Assembly (NCBI RefSeq): GCF_000025345.1
Contig: NC_013757.1
Coordinates: 3,286,001 to 3,350,000, forward strand
DNA: 64,000 bases
Source: Geodermatophilus obscurus DSM 43160
GTDB lineage: Bacteria; Actinomycetota; Actinomycetes; Mycobacteriales; Geodermatophilaceae
Direction: 5' to 3'
Positions 7,436 through 17,109 of the stretch are shown here, in pieces. The position numbers and the translations under genes were made by a program. Positions within the stretch are counted from its first letter, which is position 1. The number at the start of each line of letters is the position of its first letter. The notes under the pieces are model-generated. The model did not search any database. It was not told where the DNA came from and saw only the letters and a program-made list of their open reading frames with translations.

Positions 7436-10075
7436 TCAGGAACGCGCCAGGGCGGCCGTCGGCAGCATCGCCCTCAGGTCCGCGCGGCTGCTGATCCCCA
7501 GTTTGGCGTAGGCGTGCGAGAGGTGGGTCTCCACCGTGCGCACCGACACCACGAGCCGGCCGGCGATCGCCTGGTTGCTCAGCCCTGCACTGGCCAGGCG
7601 GGCGACCTCCTGCTCCCGAGCGGTCAACGCCGGCAGGGGCAGGACCTCGAGCGCCGACCCCTGGGTCAGTCCGCACTCTCGGGCGAAGGTGGCCGCTCGC
7701 AGCCGGGCTGCAGCCGCCGCTCGGCGTTCCCCGCGCTGCTCGTAGGCCGAGGCGGCCCCGGTCGCCGCGTCCGCCGCCAACAGCAGCGCTCCGGTCTGCT
7801 CGAAGCGGGAGCTCACCTCCTCCAGCCCCTCGGCGGACTGGGCGACAGCGGCCGCCGCGTGCGCGGCGAGGTCGGCCATGAACGGTGCGTCCAGCCGTTC
7901 CGCCTGCTGGTACAGCCTGTCGACGATCCTCGGGCCCTGCCCCAGCCGCAGCCCGTCGTGCAGCAGGACCGCCTCGACTGCCTCCTGGCCCTGACGAGCG
8001 GCCAGCGCCGCCGCCTCGAGCACGAGGACACCGGCCTGGCCCCTCCGGCCCTCCGCCGCGGCGACCCAGGCCTCCGCCATCCGCCGCAGCGGATCGAACA
8101 CCGCGATCGCCCCGGCACAGGCCGGCTGCGAGCCGTCGATCAGCCGACGGGCGCCGCAGACGTCTCCGACGAGGGCTCGCGACGCCGCCAGGGAGGACCG
8201 GCACAGCGGGAGCAGGCCGATCGGATCCCGCTCCTCGAGAGCCGGCAGCGCCTCGGCCAGCCACCGGCTCGCCACGCGCGGCTGCCCGCTGGCCAGTGCC
8301 GCCCACCCCCGGTGGACGCAGGCGATCGCATCCCCGATCCACTCGGGCGCCGTTGCCAGGTTCTGCCGGTGCAGCTCGGCCGCCCGCTGCTCGAGTCGGC
8401 AGAACCGTCCGCTCAGACCCAGCGCCAGGATCTCCGCCTGAGCGAGCGTGACCCGCGTGTGGATCCGTTCTGCCGGATCGGGATGGGAGTCGAGCGCCAG
8501 CCAACCCGACTCCGCCGTGGTCAGCGCCTGCCCCGCCCGGCCGGTCACCGCCAGGCCGGCTGCAACCGCTGCCGCCGCGAGCGCGGAAGCGGCGCCCGTG
8601 GGCGCGGACAGCACGGTCATGCCCCGCCGCACCGCTCGGTGGGGATCCCCACCGAGGAAGGCCAGCATCGCCTCGGCTGCGGCGAGGAGGGCGCGGCCCT
8701 CACCGTCCTGCACGGTCGTCCGGGCCTCGCGGAGCACTGCCTCCGCCTGGTCGGCCTGCCCCAGCCCGCAGAACAGGGTCAGCGCCCGCGCCGCTGCCAA
8801 CCGTCCCCGGTCGTCGTCGGAGGTCGCCGCGGGTGCTGCGGCGGCTGCCAGCCGTTCGGCGAGCGCCGGCTGGCCCTGCCATCGGACGGCCTCGATCAGG
8901 GCCGCGTAGGCGGGGAACCCGCCACCCTCGTCGACAGCGGCCCGGGCCAGGCGCTCGGCCAGGGGGAGGTCCAGCTGCGCGACCGCCTGACGGGCCCCAG
9001 CGGTGAGCAGGGGGCTGCTGTCCGCGGTGACTCCGCTGTCGAGCAGCACGACGGCGCGGTGCAGGAGGTGGTCGTCGCGTCCGTCAGCGGCCTGGTCCCG
9101 GGCCAGCCGGCGACGGGTCCGTTGCCGTGCGGCCTCAGGGACGAGGCTCCGGATGACCTCGGTGTAGAGCGGGTGGGCGACCCGGACCTCCCCGGATCCA
9201 TCCGCGTCGTCCTCGATCGTGCCGCGCCGCTCCAGAGCCGTGACGGCGTCCGGGCTGCTGAACTCCACCAGCTGTTCGACGCTGCAGGTCCCGGCCGTAC
9301 CGAGGACCTGCATGGCCCGCCACTCGTCGGCGTCCAGGTCTCCTAGGTGAGCCAGGACGATCTCCGTGAGGCGTTGGGACGGGACCATCTCCCCGACCCA
9401 GGACCAGAGGTCCTCGTACCGCCTCAGTCGGCCGGAGCGCAGGCCGTCCTCCACGAGTTCGTGCAGGTACAGCGGGTTCCCCGCGCTCAGCCGCCAGAGA
9501 CGCTCGACGGTCCGGGTCTGCACCTGACCGTCCACGCACCGGCCGATCAGCAGTTCGGCGTCCTCGCGCTGGAGCGGCTGCAGCTCGACGCGGGTGGCCA
9601 GCCCGTCCTTCCACAGGGCCGCCGCCGGGTCCTGGACCGCGTTGCCGGTGCGGACCGTCAGGACCAGGCTCACCGCCCCGCCGGCGGCAAGCTGGTGCAG
9701 CAGGGTGACCGACAGGGGATCGAGGAGGTGGACGTCGTCGACGCCCAGGACTCGTGGCGTTAAGGCTCCGTCCCCGACGATGGCCCTGGTCGCCTGCTGC
9801 AGGAGTGCCAGGGTGTCCGCCCCGGTGTCGATGGCCGGGAGCAGGTGTGCGAGGGCGCCGAGAGGTACCCCGGCAGCAGCCCTCGTCCCCGCGGCCCAGC
9901 GGGTGGAACGCCCCTTCCTCTCCGCCAGGACCAGCGCCTCCCGGGCGAGCCGGGTGCGGCCGGCACCCGCTGGACCCACGATTACCACGTTTCCCGGAGG
10001 GTCGGCGCCCAGCGCGCTCATGATCTCCTGGCAGGCGGCATCCCGACCGAGCAGCAGCGCGCGCTCCCCCGCCAT
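7436..10075 (-). CDS. Large ATP-binding LuxR-family (LAL/MalT-like) transcription regulator
   Basis: 879 residues from ATG 10075. The N-terminal STAND-type ATPase has Walker A GPAGAGRTRL near residue 35 and Walker B RVLGVDDVHLLD near residue 110. A long alanine-rich helical middle of TPR type follows. The C-terminal LuxR helix-turn-helix starts with LTAREQEVARLASAGLSNQA and includes SVRTVETHLSHAYAKLG. Such regulators couple a ligand and ATP to promoter activation. It is divergent from the first glycine-rich peptide cassette and is the only regulator in the island, so control of the cassettes is a reasonable inference. The frame is open upstream to about 10339. ATG 10075 is preferred because the stop of a small upstream ORF overlaps it (TGATG). 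Confidence 0.88.
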   Translation of the reverse strand: MAGERALLLGRDAACQEIMSALGADPPGNVVIVGPAGAGRTRLAREALVLAERKGRSTRWAAGTRAAAGVPLGALAHLLPAIDTGADTLALLQQATRAIVGDGALTPRVLGVDDVHLLDPLSVTLLHQLAAGGAVSLVLTVRTGNAVQDPAAALWKDGLATRVELQPLQREDAELLIGRCVDGQVQTRTVERLWRLSAGNPLYLHELVEDGLRSGRLRRYEDLWSWVGEMVPSQRLTEIVLAHLGDLDADEWRAMQVLGTAGTCSVEQLVEFSSPDAVTALERRGTIEDDADGSGEVRVAHPLYTEVIRSLVPEAARQRTRRRLARDQAADGRDDHLLHRAVVLLDSGVTADSSPLLTAGARQAVAQLDLPLAERLARAAVDEGGGFPAYAALIEAVRWQGQPALAERLAAAAAPAATSDDDRGRLAAARALTLFCGLGQADQAEAVLREARTTVQDGEGRALLAAAEAMLAFLGGDPHRAVRRGMTVLSAPTGAASALAAAAVAAGLAVTGRAGQALTTAESGWLALDSHPDPAERIHTRVTLAQAEILALGLSGRFCRLEQRAAELHRQNLATAPEWIGDAIACVHRGWAALASGQPRVASRWLAEALPALEERDPIGLLPLCRSSLAASRALVGDVCGARRLIDGSQPACAGAIAVFDPLRRMAEAWVAAAEGRRGQAGVLVLEAAALAARQGQEAVEAVLLHDGLRLGQGPRIVDRLYQQAERLDAPFMADLAAHAAAAVAQSAEGLEEVSSRFEQTGALLLAADAATGAASAYEQRGERRAAAAARLRAATFARECGLTQGSALEVLPLPALTAREQEVARLASAGLSNQAIAGRLVVSVRTVETHLSHAYAKLGISSRADLRAMLPTAALARS

Positions 10076-10173
10076 CAGTCCGTCGGAGCAGGGATCGGGG
10101 CCTGACTCTCCTGTGGATCTCCGCTGCCCGGATCCGGCCGCTGCCGGGTGCAGACCTGAACGAGAACGATCAT
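10075..10173 (-). CDS. Upstream small ORF (32 aa) coupled to the LuxR regulator
   Basis: ATG 10173 has GGGGGGAG nine bases upstream, the best ribosome site in this region. The peptide starts MIVLVQVCTRQRPDPG and its TGA overlaps the regulator ATG (TGATG). The downstream gene has no good Shine-Dalgarno of its own, so it is probably translated by re-initiation. The frame could be a true leader peptide or only a coupling device. The alternative is that the regulator starts further upstream in its own frame (for example ATG 10255), making this frame meaningless. Confidence 0.45.
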   Translation of the reverse strand: MIVLVQVCTRQRPDPGSGDPQESQAPIPAPTD

Positions 10174-10777: not shown

Positions 10778-11014
10778 ATGTTCGAGGACCAGACCGTCGA
10801 CCTGCTGCCCGCACGGACCACCCTGCAGGCCGGAGCCGGCGGTGCCGGCGGTGCCGGCGGTCGCGGCGGAGACGCCGTCGCCGTCTCGGCCGCGGTCATC
10901 TTCGTCGGGGGCGACGTGGACGACAGCACGCTGTCGGCGACGTCCGCTGCGGCCACGGCGACCGGTGGCGCCGGTGGCGACGGTGGCGACGGTGGCGACG
11001 GTGGCGACGACTGA
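10778..11014 (+). CDS. Glycine-rich small peptide A (putative precursor)
   Basis: 78 residues, starting at ATG 10778 behind a perfect AGGAGGAACC. The N-terminal block MFEDQTVDLLPARTTLQAG is nearly invariant in the three copies. It is followed by a GGX block (AGGAGGAGGRGGDA), a hydrophobic segment (VAVSAAVIFVGGDVDDSTL) and a C-terminal GGDGGDGGDGGDD tail. There is no Sec signal, no cysteine, and the peptide is very acidic. A conserved leader plus a low-complexity body suggests a processed peptide or a small polyglycine-helix structural protein. Function unknown. Neighbours include an M50 protease and a glutaminyl cyclase. Confidence 0.85.
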   Translation: MFEDQTVDLLPARTTLQAGAGGAGGAGGRGGDAVAVSAAVIFVGGDVDDSTLSATSAAATATGGAGGDGGDGGDGGDD

Positions 11015-11522: not shown

Positions 11523-11765
11523 ATGTTCGAAGACCAGACCATCGACCTGCTGCCCGCACGGACCACCCTGCAGGCCGGAGCGGGCGGTAACGGCGGATGG
11601 GGTGGCGACGGCGGAGACGCCCTTGCCGCCTCGACCGCGGTCGTCATCATCTACGGAGACGTGATCGACAGCGAGATCACGGTGATCTCCGGTGACGCGA
11701 CGGCGACCGGCGGCAACGGTGGCGACGGTGGCGACGGCGGCTGGGGTGGCGACGACAACGACTGA
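11523..11765 (+). CDS. Glycine-rich small peptide B (putative precursor)
   Basis: 80 residues from ATG 11523 with AGGAGGAACC. Same N-terminal block with one change (MFEDQTIDLLPARTTLQAG), then GGNGGWGGDGGDA, a hydrophobic strand (LAASTAVVIIYGDVIDSEI) and a tail GGNGGDGGDGGWGGDDND. It differs from A and C mainly by Asn and Trp in the GGX blocks and by a more diverged upstream region. The leader is kept while the body varies, the pattern expected of precursor families or of interacting structural paralogues. The M50 protease gene starts 142 bp further on in the same direction. Confidence 0.85.
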   Translation: MFEDQTIDLLPARTTLQAGAGGNGGWGGDGGDALAASTAVVIIYGDVIDSEITVISGDATATGGNGGDGGDGGWGGDDND

Positions 11766-11906: not shown

Positions 11907-14192
11907 ATGACGACCCTGACCGACGACGGGCAGAGCCCGCCCGCGGCCGTCGTGGAAGACCCCGTGCGCCGGCTCGCCGAGGGCACGGAGCTGCTGGGGG
12001 AGTACCAGGACTCCGGGTACCGGACCCCCAAGTTCCTCGTGCGACGGGCCGACGGCCAGGTCATGCAGCTGCCACTGCTCCTGTACCGGGTGGCCTGCCT
12101 CCTGGACGGTCGCGACGCCGAGCGCATGGCCACGGACCTGAGCGCCGAACTCGGCCAGGACCTCACCGCCGACCAGGTGACGTACCTGGTCGAGGAGCGG
12201 CTCCGGCCGGCCGGCCTCCTCGCCCCCGACCACACCGACGCCCACGACCCCGGCACGGTGACGGCCCCGACCCGGTCCGATCCCCTGCTGGCCCTCCGTT
12301 ACCGGAAGGCCGTGGTCCCGGCGAGGGTCACGTGGCGCATCGCCGGCGTCTTCCGGCTGCTCTTCAGGCGTCCCGCATGGGTGGCGGCGCTGGCCACCTT
12401 CCTGGCTCTGGACGCGCTCGTCCTCCTGCAGGGCGACTTCGTAGGCCGCGTCACGGCGGGCGCGACGACGCTGGTCCACCGACCCGGGCTGACCCTCGTC
12501 CTCCTCACGCTCCTGGTCCTCTCGATGGCCTTCCACGAGATCGGCCACGTCACGGCGTGCCGCTACGGCGGGGCTCGTCCTGGCGACATGGGGGTCGGCC
12601 TGTACCTCGTCTGGCCGGCCCTCTACAGCACGGTGACCGACACTTACCGCCTGGGCCGGGTCGGACGGCTGCGCACGGACCTCGCGGGCGTCTACTTCAA
12701 CGCCATCTTCATGGCCGTCCTGACCGGCCTGTACCTCCGCACGGACGCGACCTGGCTGCTCCCGGGGATCCTGCTCATGCACGTCCAGGCCGCCCAGCAG
12801 TTCCTGCCCAGCATCCGGTTCGACGGCTACTACATGCTCGCCGACCTGGCCGGGGTGCCCGAACTGTTCAACTACGTGGGCCCGGTGCTGAGGAGCCTGG
12901 TCCCGGGCCGACCCGCACATCCACGGGTCCAGGAACTGCGGCCCCGCTCACGGCGGCTGATCGTGCTCTGGGTCACGGTGACCGTCCCCATGCTGCTGTT
13001 CTACCTGGTCACGTTCCTGCTCGTGGTGCCGAGAGTCCTGCCGGTGGTGTGGGACGTGCTGCTCGACTACCAGAGCCGGATGGAGGCGGCGATGCGGGCC
13101 GGCGACGTCACGACCGTCGCCCTGAGCGTGTTCCAGCTCCTCCTCATCCTCCTGCCATGGGTGGGCGGCGCCCTGGTGGTCGCCATGCTCGCGGGGATCC
13201 TGCGTCGCCTCGGCGATGCGCGGGGATGGGCGTGGGCCGCCCCCGGTCGCTGGATCACCGTCCGGCGGTACGCAGCCGTCGCAGGGGTCGCCGGGGTCGC
13301 CGGTGCGCTCGTTTGGCGAGTGGCGCAGGTGGCCGGGTCGGCCCCGACGTCGACCCCCAGCACCGGGGCGGTCGGACGGCAGGCCGACGTGCTGACCGGC
13401 AGCTCGGCGCTCGCGGTGCTGCCCTCCGTTGTGCTGGTCGCCTGCTTCCTGGCGTCGGCCGCGCTGCTCCGGTGGCGAATGTCGGCGGTCGTCGTGCCGC
13501 TGGCCGTGGTCGCGGCGATGGGGCCCGCCGTCTCCGTCCTGGCCACTCCGTCCCCTGCCGTGGTCGGTGCGGCGTGGACGGCACTGGGGGCGACGATCCT
13601 GGTGACGACCACCCGGCTCGGTGCCAGCGCGGGTCGACGAGGACCACGGTCGGTGCCGTGGCAACGTGTCCTGATCGGAGCGGGGGTGGTGGCGATCGCC
13701 GCCGGTGTGGCGACGACGCCGCTGCTGGCGCTGCCGCTCGCCATGGGTGCGGCGCTGTTGGCCATCAGGACGGGGTGGCGCAGCGATGTGCTGATGCGTG
13801 GGTGGGTCCTGTCGACGGCCGGCGTGGTCGGGGTGACCGCGCTGGCCGCACTGGCCACCCCTGCAGTGCTCCGGACGATCCCGAGTGCACTGTCCCCCGT
13901 GGGACATCAGGTCCTCCTGCTGGTGGCGGGGCTGACCGTGGTCGGCGCCTCCATGGTGCGCGAGCTCCGGTGGCTGGCCCCCGCCCCTGCTCTTCTCATC
14001 GTGACCGCCGTCGTTCCCGCGCTCGGCGCCGCCGCTGCCCTCCCCCTCGTGCTGTGCTCGACCGTCGTGCTCGGTGCGCTGCTCGTCCAGGCGCTGACGC
14101 GTCACCCGGTGGAGGACCGGCCGCATCCGCTGCTCAGGGCGGCGCTCATCGTCCCGACCCTCGTCGTCGTGGTCGTCGGAGCCCTCCTCTGA
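11907..14192 (+). CDS. Multi-pass membrane M50-type zinc metalloprotease with PqqD-like N-terminus
   Basis: 761 residues. ATG 11907 is chosen over GTG 11898 because GAGGTG sits six bases before it. Residues ~25-110 (LPLLLYRVACLLDGRDAERM, then LTADQVTYLVEERL) look like a small winged-helix PqqD-type domain, the fold that often binds peptide leaders. Membrane helices follow, then HEIGH at 210-214 (FHEIGHVTACRYGG) and the third-ligand motif RFDGYYML with Asp306, the site-2-protease/YydH pattern. The long C-terminal half adds many alanine/valine-rich helices of unknown role. Family members process small peptides within membranes. Its place directly after two glycine-rich peptide genes makes it the prime candidate for their maturation. 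Confidence 0.88.
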   Translation: MTTLTDDGQSPPAAVVEDPVRRLAEGTELLGEYQDSGYRTPKFLVRRADGQVMQLPLLLYRVACLLDGRDAERMATDLSAELGQDLTADQVTYLVEERLRPAGLLAPDHTDAHDPGTVTAPTRSDPLLALRYRKAVVPARVTWRIAGVFRLLFRRPAWVAALATFLALDALVLLQGDFVGRVTAGATTLVHRPGLTLVLLTLLVLSMAFHEIGHVTACRYGGARPGDMGVGLYLVWPALYSTVTDTYRLGRVGRLRTDLAGVYFNAIFMAVLTGLYLRTDATWLLPGILLMHVQAAQQFLPSIRFDGYYMLADLAGVPELFNYVGPVLRSLVPGRPAHPRVQELRPRSRRLIVLWVTVTVPMLLFYLVTFLLVVPRVLPVVWDVLLDYQSRMEAAMRAGDVTTVALSVFQLLLILLPWVGGALVVAMLAGILRRLGDARGWAWAAPGRWITVRRYAAVAGVAGVAGALVWRVAQVAGSAPTSTPSTGAVGRQADVLTGSSALAVLPSVVLVACFLASAALLRWRMSAVVVPLAVVAAMGPAVSVLATPSPAVVGAAWTALGATILVTTTRLGASAGRRGPRSVPWQRVLIGAGVVAIAAGVATTPLLALPLAMGAALLAIRTGWRSDVLMRGWVLSTAGVVGVTALAALATPAVLRTIPSALSPVGHQVLLLVAGLTVVGASMVRELRWLAPAPALLIVTAVVPALGAAAALPLVLCSTVVLGALLVQALTRHPVEDRPHPLLRAALIVPTLVVVVVGALL

Positions 14193-14498: not shown

Positions 14499-14940
14499 AT
14501 GCATTTCCTGATCTCCGGTGATGCCCTCGTGCGGATGACCCGGGCCACCAAGCTCTGTGCGGACGCCCTCGTCCCGGCGCTGGTGCTCATGGCGTGCTCG
14601 GCCTCTGCCGATCCGAGCAGTTCTGCGAGCGCGGGCGTCTCGGCCAGCGCCGCGAGCGCGGCCCGGCTCCCCCGGTACCGATGCGGATGCCGGTGCCCTG
14701 AGCATCGCCTCCTGCTCGGAGAGTTCGTGTTCGGTGACGCTCGCGGGCACCGGGTCACGTGTCCAGGTCCTCGGTACGACGATCACGTTCGAGGACGTAC
14801 GCGACGGCCGGGCAACCCTTCGCGTCGACGACCAGCCCATCACCTGCACCGAGGGGCAGAGCGCATCAGCTGGTCCTTTAACGCTGACGTGCACGGACGT
14901 CACGAGCGACGCCGTCACCGTGACCGTCTCGCTCGGCTGA
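14499..14940 (+). pseudogene. Cysteine-containing small secreted protein, frameshifted
   Basis: ATG 14499 has TTGGAGG at ideal distance. The first frame gives a lipoprotein-like signal (VPALVLMAC, Cys33) and an Ser/Ala linker, then becomes Arg/His-rich. The second frame, shifted by one base, encodes ALSIASCSESSCSVTLAGTG and continues to a stop at 14938-14940. That second part is clearly related to the gene at 16753-17109. Removing one base in the C-rich run around 14660-14676 would join signal and domain into one ~146-residue protein. Either a real inactivating frameshift, a sequencing error in a C run, or rarely a programmed shift. Function unknown; four conserved cysteines suggest two disulfides outside the cell. 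Confidence 0.6.
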
Positions 14941-15482: not shown

Positions 15483-15719
15483 ATGTTCGAGGACCAGACC
15501 GTCGACCTGCTGCCCGCACGGACCACCCTGCAGGCCGGAGCCGGCGGTGCCGGCGGTGCCGGCGGCCGGGGCGGAGACGCCGTCGCCGCCTCCGTCGCAG
15601 CCATCTTCGTGCAGGGCAACGTGTCCGACAGCACGCTGACCGTCGAGTCCGGTCCTGCCGAGGCGACCGGTGGCGACGGCGGTGCCGGTGGCGCCGGCGG
15701 CGCTGGCGGCGACGACTGA
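15483..15719 (+). CDS. Glycine-rich small peptide C (putative precursor)
   Basis: 78 residues from ATG 15483 behind AGGAGGAACC. The N-terminal block is identical to A through residue 33 (MFEDQTVDLLPARTTLQAG then AGGAGGAGGRGGDA). The hydrophobic strand (VAASVAAIFVQGNVSDSTL) and the tail GGDGGAGGAGGAGGDD differ. All copies keep Gln17 after the ARTTL motif. Upstream and downstream regions match cassette A. The glutaminyl cyclase gene follows 190 bp downstream. Confidence 0.85.
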   Translation: MFEDQTVDLLPARTTLQAGAGGAGGAGGRGGDAVAASVAAIFVQGNVSDSTLTVESGPAEATGGDGGAGGAGGAGGDD

Positions 15720-15909: not shown

Positions 15910-16749
15910 GTGAACCGCATGACCCACCACCGGACCCTCGGCGTCGTCCTCACCACCGCCGTGTTGTGCGGCTGCTCGTCGGGGGACGGCGCGGAGGCCG
16001 CGGCCGAGGGTCAGCCGGCGGTCCGGGAAGCAATCACGGGTGGCTCGGCGCAGTCCTTCCCGGTGCTGCGCCCCGAGGTCCTGGCGGAGGTGCCGCACGA
16101 CCCGTCAGCCTTCACCCAGGGACTGGAGCTGCACGAGGGCACTCTCTACGAGGGCACCGGCCTCGAGGGGAAGTCCCAGCTGCGCGTGCTGGACCCGGCC
16201 ACGGGTGAGGTCCTGCGCGCCCAGTCGCTGCCCGGACAGCTGTTCGGGGAGGGCATCGCCGTCGCGGGGGACCGCATCTGGCAGCTCACCTGGCAGGACG
16301 GCGTGGTGCTCGAGTGGGACCGCGCCACTCTCACGCTGCGCCAGCAGCTGCCGCTCGACGGGGAGGGATGGGGGTTGTGCCACGACGGCACCCGCCTGGT
16401 GCGCAGCGACGGGACCGACCGGCTGCGCTTCCACGACCCGGTCACCTTCGCCGAGACCGGCTCGGTCACGGTGACGATCGACGGCGAGCCGGTGACCCAG
16501 CTCAACGAACTCGAGTGCGTCGACGGGCAGGTCTGGGCGAACGTGTGGCCCTCCGACGTCCTCGTCCGCATCGACCCGGCCAGGGGACGCGTCACCGCTG
16601 CCGTGGACGCTGCCGGGCTGCTCGACCCGGAGCAGCGCGCGAACGCCGACGCCGTGCTCAACGGGATCGCGGCGTTGGGCGACGACGAGTACCTGCTCTC
16701 CGGCAAGCTGTGGCCGGTCTCGTTCCGCGTCCGCTTTGTGGAGGAGTAG
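15910..16749 (+). CDS. Glutaminyl-peptide cyclotransferase, lipoprotein
   Basis: 279 residues of the beta-propeller (plant/bacterial) glutaminyl cyclase family, which converts N-terminal glutamine of peptides to pyroglutamate. Hallmarks are PHDPSAFTQGLELHEGTLYE and TGLEGKSQLRVLD near residues 64-100. LNELECVDGQVWANVWPSD (~198) and LNGIAALGDDEYLLSGKLWP (~253) complete it. The N-terminus MTHHRTLGVVLTTAVLCGC is a lipoprotein signal, so the enzyme acts outside the membrane. GTG 15910 or ATG 15919 could be the start. It sits in the glycine-rich peptide island; all three peptides have a conserved Gln17 as a possible substrate after cleavage (inference). Confidence 0.92.
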   Translation: MNRMTHHRTLGVVLTTAVLCGCSSGDGAEAAAEGQPAVREAITGGSAQSFPVLRPEVLAEVPHDPSAFTQGLELHEGTLYEGTGLEGKSQLRVLDPATGEVLRAQSLPGQLFGEGIAVAGDRIWQLTWQDGVVLEWDRATLTLRQQLPLDGEGWGLCHDGTRLVRSDGTDRLRFHDPVTFAETGSVTVTIDGEPVTQLNELECVDGQVWANVWPSDVLVRIDPARGRVTAAVDAAGLLDPEQRANADAVLNGIAALGDDEYLLSGKLWPVSFRVRFVEE

Positions 16750-16752
16750 TCG

Positions 16753-17109
16753 GTGACCGGTCGGCGTCGTCCCCGACCTGCCGGCGCGAGCGCCGGTAGG
16801 TCGGGTGTCTCGTCCGGGGCAGTCAGCGTGTCCGCGGCGGGCGCGTCCGGCTCCGGGTCCAGATCCGTGAGCCTCGTGTCCTGTTTCGGGAACTCCTGCT
16901 TGGTGACGCTCGGCGGCAGCGGTTCACGAGCGCACGTCCTCGGGACGGACTTCGGCCTCGCGGCGATCGACGGGGACCGGGCGACCCTCCACGTCGATGG
17001 CCGGGAGGTCACCTGTGACCTGGGGCGGAGCGTCTCCGTCGGCGCGTTGCGCCTCACCTGCACGGCCGCCACGGACGGCACGGTGACCTTCACCGTCGTC
17101 CGGGACTGA
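16753..17109 (+). CDS. Small four-cysteine protein, paralogue of the gene at 14499
   Basis: 118 residues. The C-terminal 80 match the frameshifted gene upstream: SLVSCFGNSCLVTLGGSGS, HVLGTDFG, RATLHVDGREVTC and LRLTCTAATDGTVTFTV. The paired cysteines (C-x4-C, then TC and LTC) are conserved in both, and the pattern of short strands suggests a beta-sandwich. The N-terminal Gly/Ser/Ala part has no signal peptide from GTG 16753, so export is uncertain. It starts three bases after the cyclotransferase stop with GAGGAG as ribosome site, so the two form an operon. I do not recognise the family. Confidence 0.7.
   Translation: MTGRRRPRPAGASAGRSGVSSGAVSVSAAGASGSGSRSVSLVSCFGNSCLVTLGGSGSRAHVLGTDFGLAAIDGDRATLHVDGREVTCDLGRSVSVGALRLTCTAATDGTVTFTVVRD

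What the first reader, a model, noticed from the sequence alone, without database searches (positions are those of the whole stretch)
11907..12260. M50 protease with a possible peptide-recognition (RRE/PqqD-like) N-terminal domain
Before the first membrane helix, residues ~25-110 have the length and helix pattern of PqqD-like domains, which bind precursor leaders in many RiPP pathways. Joined to an intact HEIGH...FDG protease, this would give leader recognition and cleavage in one membrane protein.
Basis: inference. Interest (0 to 1): 0.55.

Follow-up and report, generated by a model that had tools for sequence, protein, structure and literature searches.

The report
Leader-reading membrane protease with glutamine capper
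A soil actinobacterium's membrane protease carries a peptide-grasping domain that probably reads the first 16 residues of small glycine-rich precursors and cuts them off, so that a partner enzyme, in some relatives fused to the protease, can seal the new glutamine end; the grasp-and-cut design is known, the pairing with the sealing enzyme I did not find described.

Summary
Residues 21-108 of the protease (nt 11967-12230) are predicted as a beta3-alpha3 winged helix whose best PDB matches are leader-bound RREs and PqqD. The architecture is not new: daptide peptidases are RREs N-terminally fused to a site-2 protease (PMC10036551, passages), and this protein matches that NCBI family over residues 61-320, below its cut-off. 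Around it lies a less familiar system, found only in Geodermatophilaceae: three precursors with a 16-residue leader (MFEDQTVDLLPARTTL), no tailoring enzyme among the neighbours scanned, and a glutamine cyclotransferase (QC, PF05096). At three loci of relatives QC is fused to the protease's C-terminus. QC was found in 7 of 112 family genomes (8 places), each time at such a locus; there 27 of 27 precursors have Gln right after RTT[LM], at 9 loci without QC 0 of 14. This suggests the cut site and a pyroglutamate cap. Independent switches are few (2-3), and no binding, cleavage or cyclisation was tested. A C-terminal membrane module that resembles GT-C glycosyltransferases by fold alone, and an accompanying lipoprotein with a collagen-like linker, remain unexplained.

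The parts
11907..14192 (+). RRE-M50 membrane protease, 761 aa
   Evidence: ORF; NF041824 daptide_HExxH 93.9 bits over residues 61-320, under its cut-off of 300; homologues in 27 of 112 family genomes
11967..12230 (+). RRE / PqqD-like domain, residues 21-108
   Evidence: AlphaFold2 model, PDB fold matches to leader-bound RREs and PqqD
12534..12548 (+). HEIGH zinc motif, residues 210-214
   Evidence: sequence; H210, E211, G213, H214 invariant in 23 proteases; SpoIVFB and mjS2P fold rows within residues 132-334
12819..12827 (+). FDG motif, residues 305-307 (third zinc ligand Asp)
   Evidence: sequence; D306, G307 invariant in 23 proteases; role recalled from the S2P family
13254..14189 (+). C-terminal multi-helix membrane module, residues 450-761, GT-C-like by fold only
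   Evidence: 13 best VIA rows are enzymes that I class, from memory, as GT-C, Z 10.2-14.3; no match in PDB sequences; best Pfam match TgpA_N, E 0.0022, in 1 of 16 members
10778..11014 (+). precursor 1 (78 aa); leader 10778-10825, predicted cut before Gln codon 10826-10828
   Evidence: AGGAGG ribosome site
11523..11765 (+). precursor 2 (80 aa); leader 11523-11570
15483..15719 (+). precursor 3 (78 aa); leader 15483-15530
15910..16749 (+). glutamine cyclotransferase (QC), probable lipoprotein (lipobox rule recalled)
   Evidence: PF05096 E 1.7e-90; solved QCs 3nok E 1.4e-52, 3nol, 3mbr, 2faw
7436..10078 (-). large LuxR-type regulator (AbsR2-like, LuxR HTH)
   Evidence: best NCBIfam AbsR2 187 bits, cut-off 850; homologue at 17 of 18 type I loci or contigs, 0 of 4 type II
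14499..14940 (+). companion lipoprotein gene (collagen-like linker, Cys-containing domain), out of frame in the window
   Evidence: alignment with two relatives; domain found at 13 other type I loci or contigs
16753..17109 (+). second copy of the companion domain

Best explanation
The protein is a leader peptidase of a RiPP-like pathway. Its N-terminal RRE domain, on the cytosolic side, holds the 16-residue leader of the neighbouring precursors (inferred) and presents the RTT[LM]|X junction to the HEIGH...FDG intramembrane zinc site, which cuts after residue 16 (inferred from conservation and from the Gln/QC link). The released core, 62-64 residues in the window, begins with Gln; QC, probably a lipoprotein outside the membrane, cyclises it to pyroglutamate (inferred). 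At loci of three relatives QC is part of the protease chain, placing cutting and capping in one polypeptide (shown as gene structure). Relatives without QC use the same kind of leader but another first core residue (shown).
For: RRE fold. Protease core. Precursors found beside the protease in 9 of the 10 genus genomes that have it and in 0 of the 16 without (E up to 0.001). L, L, P, R, T at P8, P7, P6, P4, P3 in 41 of 41 precursors, while the core varies; for the 12 found by a text pattern part of this is by construction, for the 29 found by similarity it is not. QC in 7 of 112 family genomes, 8 places, each fused to or within about 2.3 kb of such a protease. P1' is Gln in 27 of 27 precursors at QC loci and in 0 of 14 at loci without; P1' was not part of the pattern, and no other of the 20 positions compared separates the two groups. 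Fusions: PF05096 at 824-1054 of L060 and 818-1052 of L061, the third, G004, by open frame and alignment.
Against: No experiment. Foldseek's E for the RRE is only 0.015 and the domain's pLDDT is moderate (76-90 per block of ten). The locus association rests on related loci: at least 3 changes on the tree, 2 forced by well-supported branches, all going the same way, which cannot reach significance (sign test p 0.5); the naive Fisher value 4e-5 ignores this. QC of this family is not confined to such loci in bacteria at large: 3 of 14 named control genomes have it. Over all pairs of 39 precursors the last 13 leader codons show as many amino-acid-changing (1898) as silent (1896) codon differences. 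The precursors show no signal peptide and no dedicated exporter was seen, so how the core reaches an outside QC is open. G013 has the protease but no such precursor; it belongs to a second subfamily.
Confidence: 0.72

Rival explanations
1. The N-terminal domain is an RRE-like winged helix that does not bind the leader (for example a regulatory or assembly domain); the protease recognises the leader at its active site alone.
For: Winged helices are common: chains outside the RRE group score VIA Z 7.9 (Rv2067c), 7.6 (PKMT2), 6.7 (GdmN), tied with PqqD and the sactisynthase RREs. The YydH/LiaK epipeptide protease model matches over residues 190-320 only, that is without this domain.
Against: The three best rows are RREs solved with their leader (TbiB1, twice) and PqqD; the full-length model adds a lasso B1 protein with its leader at Z 9.1; the domain aligns in all 29 rows; RRE-dependence is reported for the daptide peptidase (PMC10036551, passages).
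Confidence: 0.12
2. A canonical daptide or epipeptide protease whose tailoring enzymes lie elsewhere.
For: NF041824 93.9 bits, NF058609 45.3 bits.
Against: Both far below their cut-offs (300, 225); no aminotransferase, methyltransferase, alcohol dehydrogenase or radical SAM among the neighbours scanned between 5.7 and 19.2 kb; the precursors lack the ELExMEAP motif and the C-terminal Thr described for daptides (PMC10036551, passages).
Confidence: 0.05
3. The QC link is a by-product of shared ancestry: QC and Gln happen to travel with the same lineages and QC acts on other secreted proteins.
For: Only 2 independent pairs on well-supported branches; QC exists without such loci in 3 of 14 control genomes outside the family.
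Against: QC was not found in the other 105 family genomes, lies at the locus in 8 of 8 places and is fused to the protease in 3 of them; G018 carries loci of both kinds, each with the matching residue.
Confidence: 0.11

Closest known systems
Daptide leader peptidase MpaP/DapP (NCBIfam NF041824)
   Same: RRE at the N-terminus of a site-2 protease, beside several short precursors with a conserved N-terminal motif (PMC10036551, passages)
   Different: Score 93.9 against a cut-off of 300; no daptide tailoring enzymes among the neighbours scanned; other leader; QC beside or fused. Whether MpaP has a like C-terminal module was not tested
Epipeptide metalloprotease EpeP/YydH (NF058609)
   Same: M50 core; PMC10885120 (passage) says EpeP is thought to cut and export
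   Different: Only residues 190-320 match (45.3 of 225 bits); no radical SAM partner among the neighbours scanned
TMcin leader protease TmcP, S2P clan (PMC13252029, first of five parts read)
   Same: An S2P-clan membrane protease removes a RiPP leader
   Different: DUF3267 protein with four membrane helices acting on a membrane-spanning precursor; no RRE or QC mentioned in the part read
Lasso-peptide RREs with leader (5v1u, 5v1v, 6jx3) and PqqD (5sxy)
   Same: Fold of the N-terminal domain
   Different: 16-18% identity; not fused to a membrane protease in those entries
Glutaminyl cyclases 3nok, 3nol, 3mbr
   Same: The QC partner is a near full-length relative (E down to 1.4e-52)
   Different: In this bacterial family found only at one type of locus, and at three of them fused to an intramembrane protease

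Membership tests
RRE / PqqD-like domain | beta3-alpha3 winged-helix fold of about 85 residues | tested here: met
RRE / PqqD-like domain | match to a curated RRE/PqqD sequence model | tested here: inconclusive
   window domain: no Pfam match, NF041824 at E 0.035; 10 of 29 members match ApyI (best 2.6e-4), 3 of 29 TIGR03859 PqqD (best 0.011), 2 of 29 PF05402 (best 0.12)
RRE / PqqD-like domain | binds the leader of a precursor | not testable with these tools
   needs a binding assay or two-chain co-folding
M50 / site-2 protease | HExxH plus distal Asp in membrane helices, S2P fold | tested here: met
   H210, E211, H214, D306 invariant in 23; SpoIVFB Z 7.8 over 133 residues, mjS2P Z 7.1 over 146; Pfam PF02163 only 10.1 bits of 27.2
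Daptide peptidase (NF041824) | score above the curated cut-off of 300 bits | tested here: not met
   93.9 bits
Daptide pathway | oxidative decarboxylase, aminotransferase, methyltransferase in the cluster | tested here: not met
   none among the neighbours scanned between 5.7 and 19.2 kb; genes further away were not scanned
Epipeptide protease (NF058609) | score above the cut-off of 225 bits | tested here: not met
   45.3 bits
Glutamine cyclotransferase PF05096 (partner gene) | whole-domain match above cut-off | tested here: met
   303.2 bits, cut-off 22.3
GT-C glycosyltransferase (C-terminal module) | GT-C membrane fold | tested here: inconclusive
   VIA Z 10.2-14.3 over 251-292 residues, rmsd 5.3-6.4 A; no Foldseek match under E 0.001; no sequence match
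GT-C glycosyltransferase (C-terminal module) | acidic catalytic motif in the first outer loop (recalled) | tested here: inconclusive
   the loop where it would lie has 38 fewer residues in the window's protein than in L060; the place of the motif is my inference
RiPP | leader-core precursor processed to a modified product | not testable with these tools
   precursor and processing genes present; product not observed

The most novel reading that the evidence does not exclude
One membrane protein reads a leader, cuts it, passes the core outward through its own extra C-terminal membrane module, and (in the fused forms) caps the emerging glutamine as pyroglutamate. The product is not an antibiotic but a glycine-rich, repeat-built surface material, with the collagen-stalked lipoprotein as its anchor or nucleator: a dedicated 'cut, export and cap' line for extracellular structural peptides.
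Probability: 0.22. Interest if true: 0.78.

Novelty: new variant of a known kind. Interest (0 to 1): 0.55.

Why it matters
If right, the first residue of the core and the presence of a capping enzyme change together, so the cut site of an RRE-dependent intramembrane protease can be read from genomes to the residue; the natural protease-QC fusions are a ready test object for how such proteases hand their product to the outside, and pyroglutamate would be a simple, enzyme-made end for a bacterial RiPP-like peptide.

Tried and rejected
Sequence-only tests of the N-terminal domain were weak: phmmer against PDB sequences found nothing at E up to 10, the 29-member profile found only matches at E 0.86 or worse, such as Lon, Pfam found nothing for the window's domain. 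The fold comparison was needed.

Daptide and epipeptide membership was considered and rejected (cut-offs not met). A second protease subfamily ('type II': G013 and others in the family; several order-level hits too) has a different partner of about 215 residues (motif ALPDKEVISLLDLNADL), seen in G013 and in 5 of 6 further family loci scanned (in the sixth, L118, only a shorter frame without that motif) and in 5 of 25 loci scanned. It was kept out of the Gln/QC count because no RTT[LM] precursor was found there. G059:C366 is a type I locus cut by the contig end with no precursor found; G059:C69 and G096:C22 are partial hits that I did not read; none of these is in the count. G005 is split over two contigs. 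The similarity search missed the three precursors of G018:C14, which came, so its misses in other genomes are not proof of absence. In one search only the 8 best candidates per genome were scored.

The GT-C reading of residues 450-761: Foldseek gives no significant match for the full model; profile searches found no relative in PDB sequences, only a TgpA_N match at E 0.0022 in 1 of 16 members in Pfam, and no relative outside this protease in four genomes and 197 class genomes. Kept as a lead only.

An upstream shared motif was looked for by counting 9-mers; I saw only sharing within groups of related loci. Leader codons: among pairs of the four closest genomes 20 silent against 6 amino-acid-changing codon differences; over all pairs of 39 precursors 1896 against 1898 in the last 13 leader codons.

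Literature: in the listings (open-licence PMC only) I saw no paper that joins an M50/RRE protease with a glutaminyl cyclase or describes these precursors. Seen further: passages of PMC10036551, PMC10885120 and PMC12710340, and the first of five parts of PMC13252029; the others as listings with the start of the abstract.

Full report
What was claimed.

Checking it. The ORF 11907-14192 encodes 761 residues with HEIGH at 210-214 and FDG at 305-307. I aligned the N-terminal parts of 29 proteases, the window's included, and predicted the structure (mean pLDDT 74.8, blocks of ten between residues 21 and 110 at 76-90, both ends low). The order of elements is three strands then three helices, as in PqqD. 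Foldseek's first PDB match is TbiB1 with its leader (E 0.015, probability 1.00; none under 0.001). VIA-align 2 lists TbiB1 (Z 9.4 twice; 80 and 84 residues, 2.5 and 2.9 A), PqqD (Z 8.4, 85 residues, 2.5 A), two sactipeptide-maturase entries, 5wgg and 5why (CteB, name recalled; 7.9 and 7.6), MccB (6.6), ThcOx (6.6), SuiB (4.2) and SkfB (3.9). Rows outside this group reach 7.9 (Rv2067c), 7.6 (PKMT2) and 6.7 (GdmN): TbiB1 stands clear, the rest are tied with them. The full-length model repeats the result, with a lasso B1 protein bound to its leader at Z 9.1 and TbiB1 at 8.9. By sequence alone the evidence is weak but points the same way: ApyI RRE in 10 of 29 members (best E 2.6e-4), daptide peptidase in 5 of 29, PqqD in 3 of 29. 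The protease core is real too: SpoIVFB (Z 7.8, residues 139-319) and mjS2P (Z 7.1, residues 132-332).

What is known already. [quoted passage not shown] The NCBI model of that peptidase matches here over residues 61-320 at 93.9 bits, cut-off 300. So the fusion as such is a known kind.

The locus. Three precursors of 78-80 residues (10778-11014, 11523-11765, 15483-15719) share the leader MFEDQT[VI]DLLPARTTL and then differ. Between 5.7 and 19.2 kb the other genes scanned are a phosphoribosyltransferase, a BldD-like regulator, a large LuxR-type regulator, a glutamine cyclotransferase, NusB, elongation factor P and an M24 peptidase, and two frames of a small domain without a family; no RiPP tailoring enzyme was among them. 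I did not scan the genes beyond 19.2 kb, nor the other loci in full.

Relatives. In the genus the protease is in 10 of 26 genomes, the precursors in 9 of 26, all among those 10, QC in 7 of 26, all among those 9. In the family the protease is in 27 of 112 genomes at E 1e-20 and QC in 7 of 112, the same 7, at 8 places; as a control, QC is found in 3 of 14 named genomes, so it is not confined to such loci in bacteria at large. In G002, G004 and G018:C34 QC lies in the same open frame as the protease; Pfam places it at 818-1052 and 824-1054 of the two that I scanned. At the other five places it is a separate neighbour; in the window, G009, G023 and G018:C14 its start looks like a lipoprotein signal (the lipobox rule is recalled). 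A search of 200 order genomes found a protease match in 34, 27 of them outside the family, at 37-45% identity. The C-terminal module that marks the precursor-bearing type was found in 1 of 197 genomes of the class, the window's own (E up to 1e-10).

The Gln/QC rule. Seventeen loci have readable precursors, 41 in all. At the 8 loci with QC, 27 of 27 precursors have Gln directly after RTT[LM]; at the 9 without, 0 of 14 (Lys 6, Thr 4, Ser 2, Asp 2; one of the 14 reads RTVM). Of 20 positions around this point only this one separates the groups. The patterns used fix parts of the leader but not this position. QC acts on N-terminal glutamine (established knowledge), so the rule also says where the cut lies. 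Limits: on the protease tree the trait changes at least 3 times, 2 of them forced; the 2 independent pairs agree but cannot be significant. Strongest single cases: G018:C14, whose cores resemble those of G025 and G049 (Lys, Asp) but start with Gln and have QC next door, and G018 as a whole, which holds Gln loci with QC and a Thr locus without one.

Mechanism. Shown or predicted: domain fold, gene order, fusions, covariation. Inferred: leader binding, cut after residue 16, cyclisation outside the membrane. Export is open; for EpeP, an M50 relative, export by the protease itself has been suggested (PMC10885120, passage). The extra module, residues 450-761, resembles GT-C enzymes in the thirteen best fold rows (Z 10.2-14.3; the class name is recalled), but the tool warns that helical models can reach such scores, and no sequence supports it.

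A companion. A small lipoprotein-like gene, in many loci with a Gly-rich, collagen-like linker, and a Cys-containing domain of about 80 residues, accompanies 14 of the 18 type I loci or contigs compared; it was not found in G018:C51, G106, G059:C366 and the G005:C56 contig, nor in the four type II loci compared (tblastn, E 1e-5). The LuxR-type regulator is at 17 of the 18 (not on the second G005 contig) and at 0 of the four type II loci. These look like constant parts of the system.

Verdict.

Noticed in passing
14499-14940: Companion lipoprotein gene: the collagen-like Gly-rich repeat is much shorter than in two relatives and the following domain is out of frame with the start.
   Followed up: partly
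16753-17109: Second copy of the companion domain, directly behind the QC gene.
   Followed up: partly
L064, L065, L104 (precursors): Cores built of two imperfect repeats of about 18 residues (Q-x-x-N-x-A-x-A...G-N-x-N / Q-x-N-x-A...A-G-S-N), reminiscent of curli repeats (recalled, not tested).
   Followed up: no
L067:10098-10745, L110:6961-7602 and others: A second protease subfamily has a partner of about 215 residues with the motif ALPDKEVISLLDLNADL and repeated AAPIDAAVAAN blocks; possibly its substrate.
   Followed up: no
L060:13370-15706, L061:4728-7226: Hsp70-like proteins with a beta-propeller C-terminus beside fused protease-QC loci; a frame with a like start also lies beside G004's.
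   Followed up: no
13254-14189: GT-C-like membrane module of unknown role at the C-terminus of the protease.
   Followed up: partly
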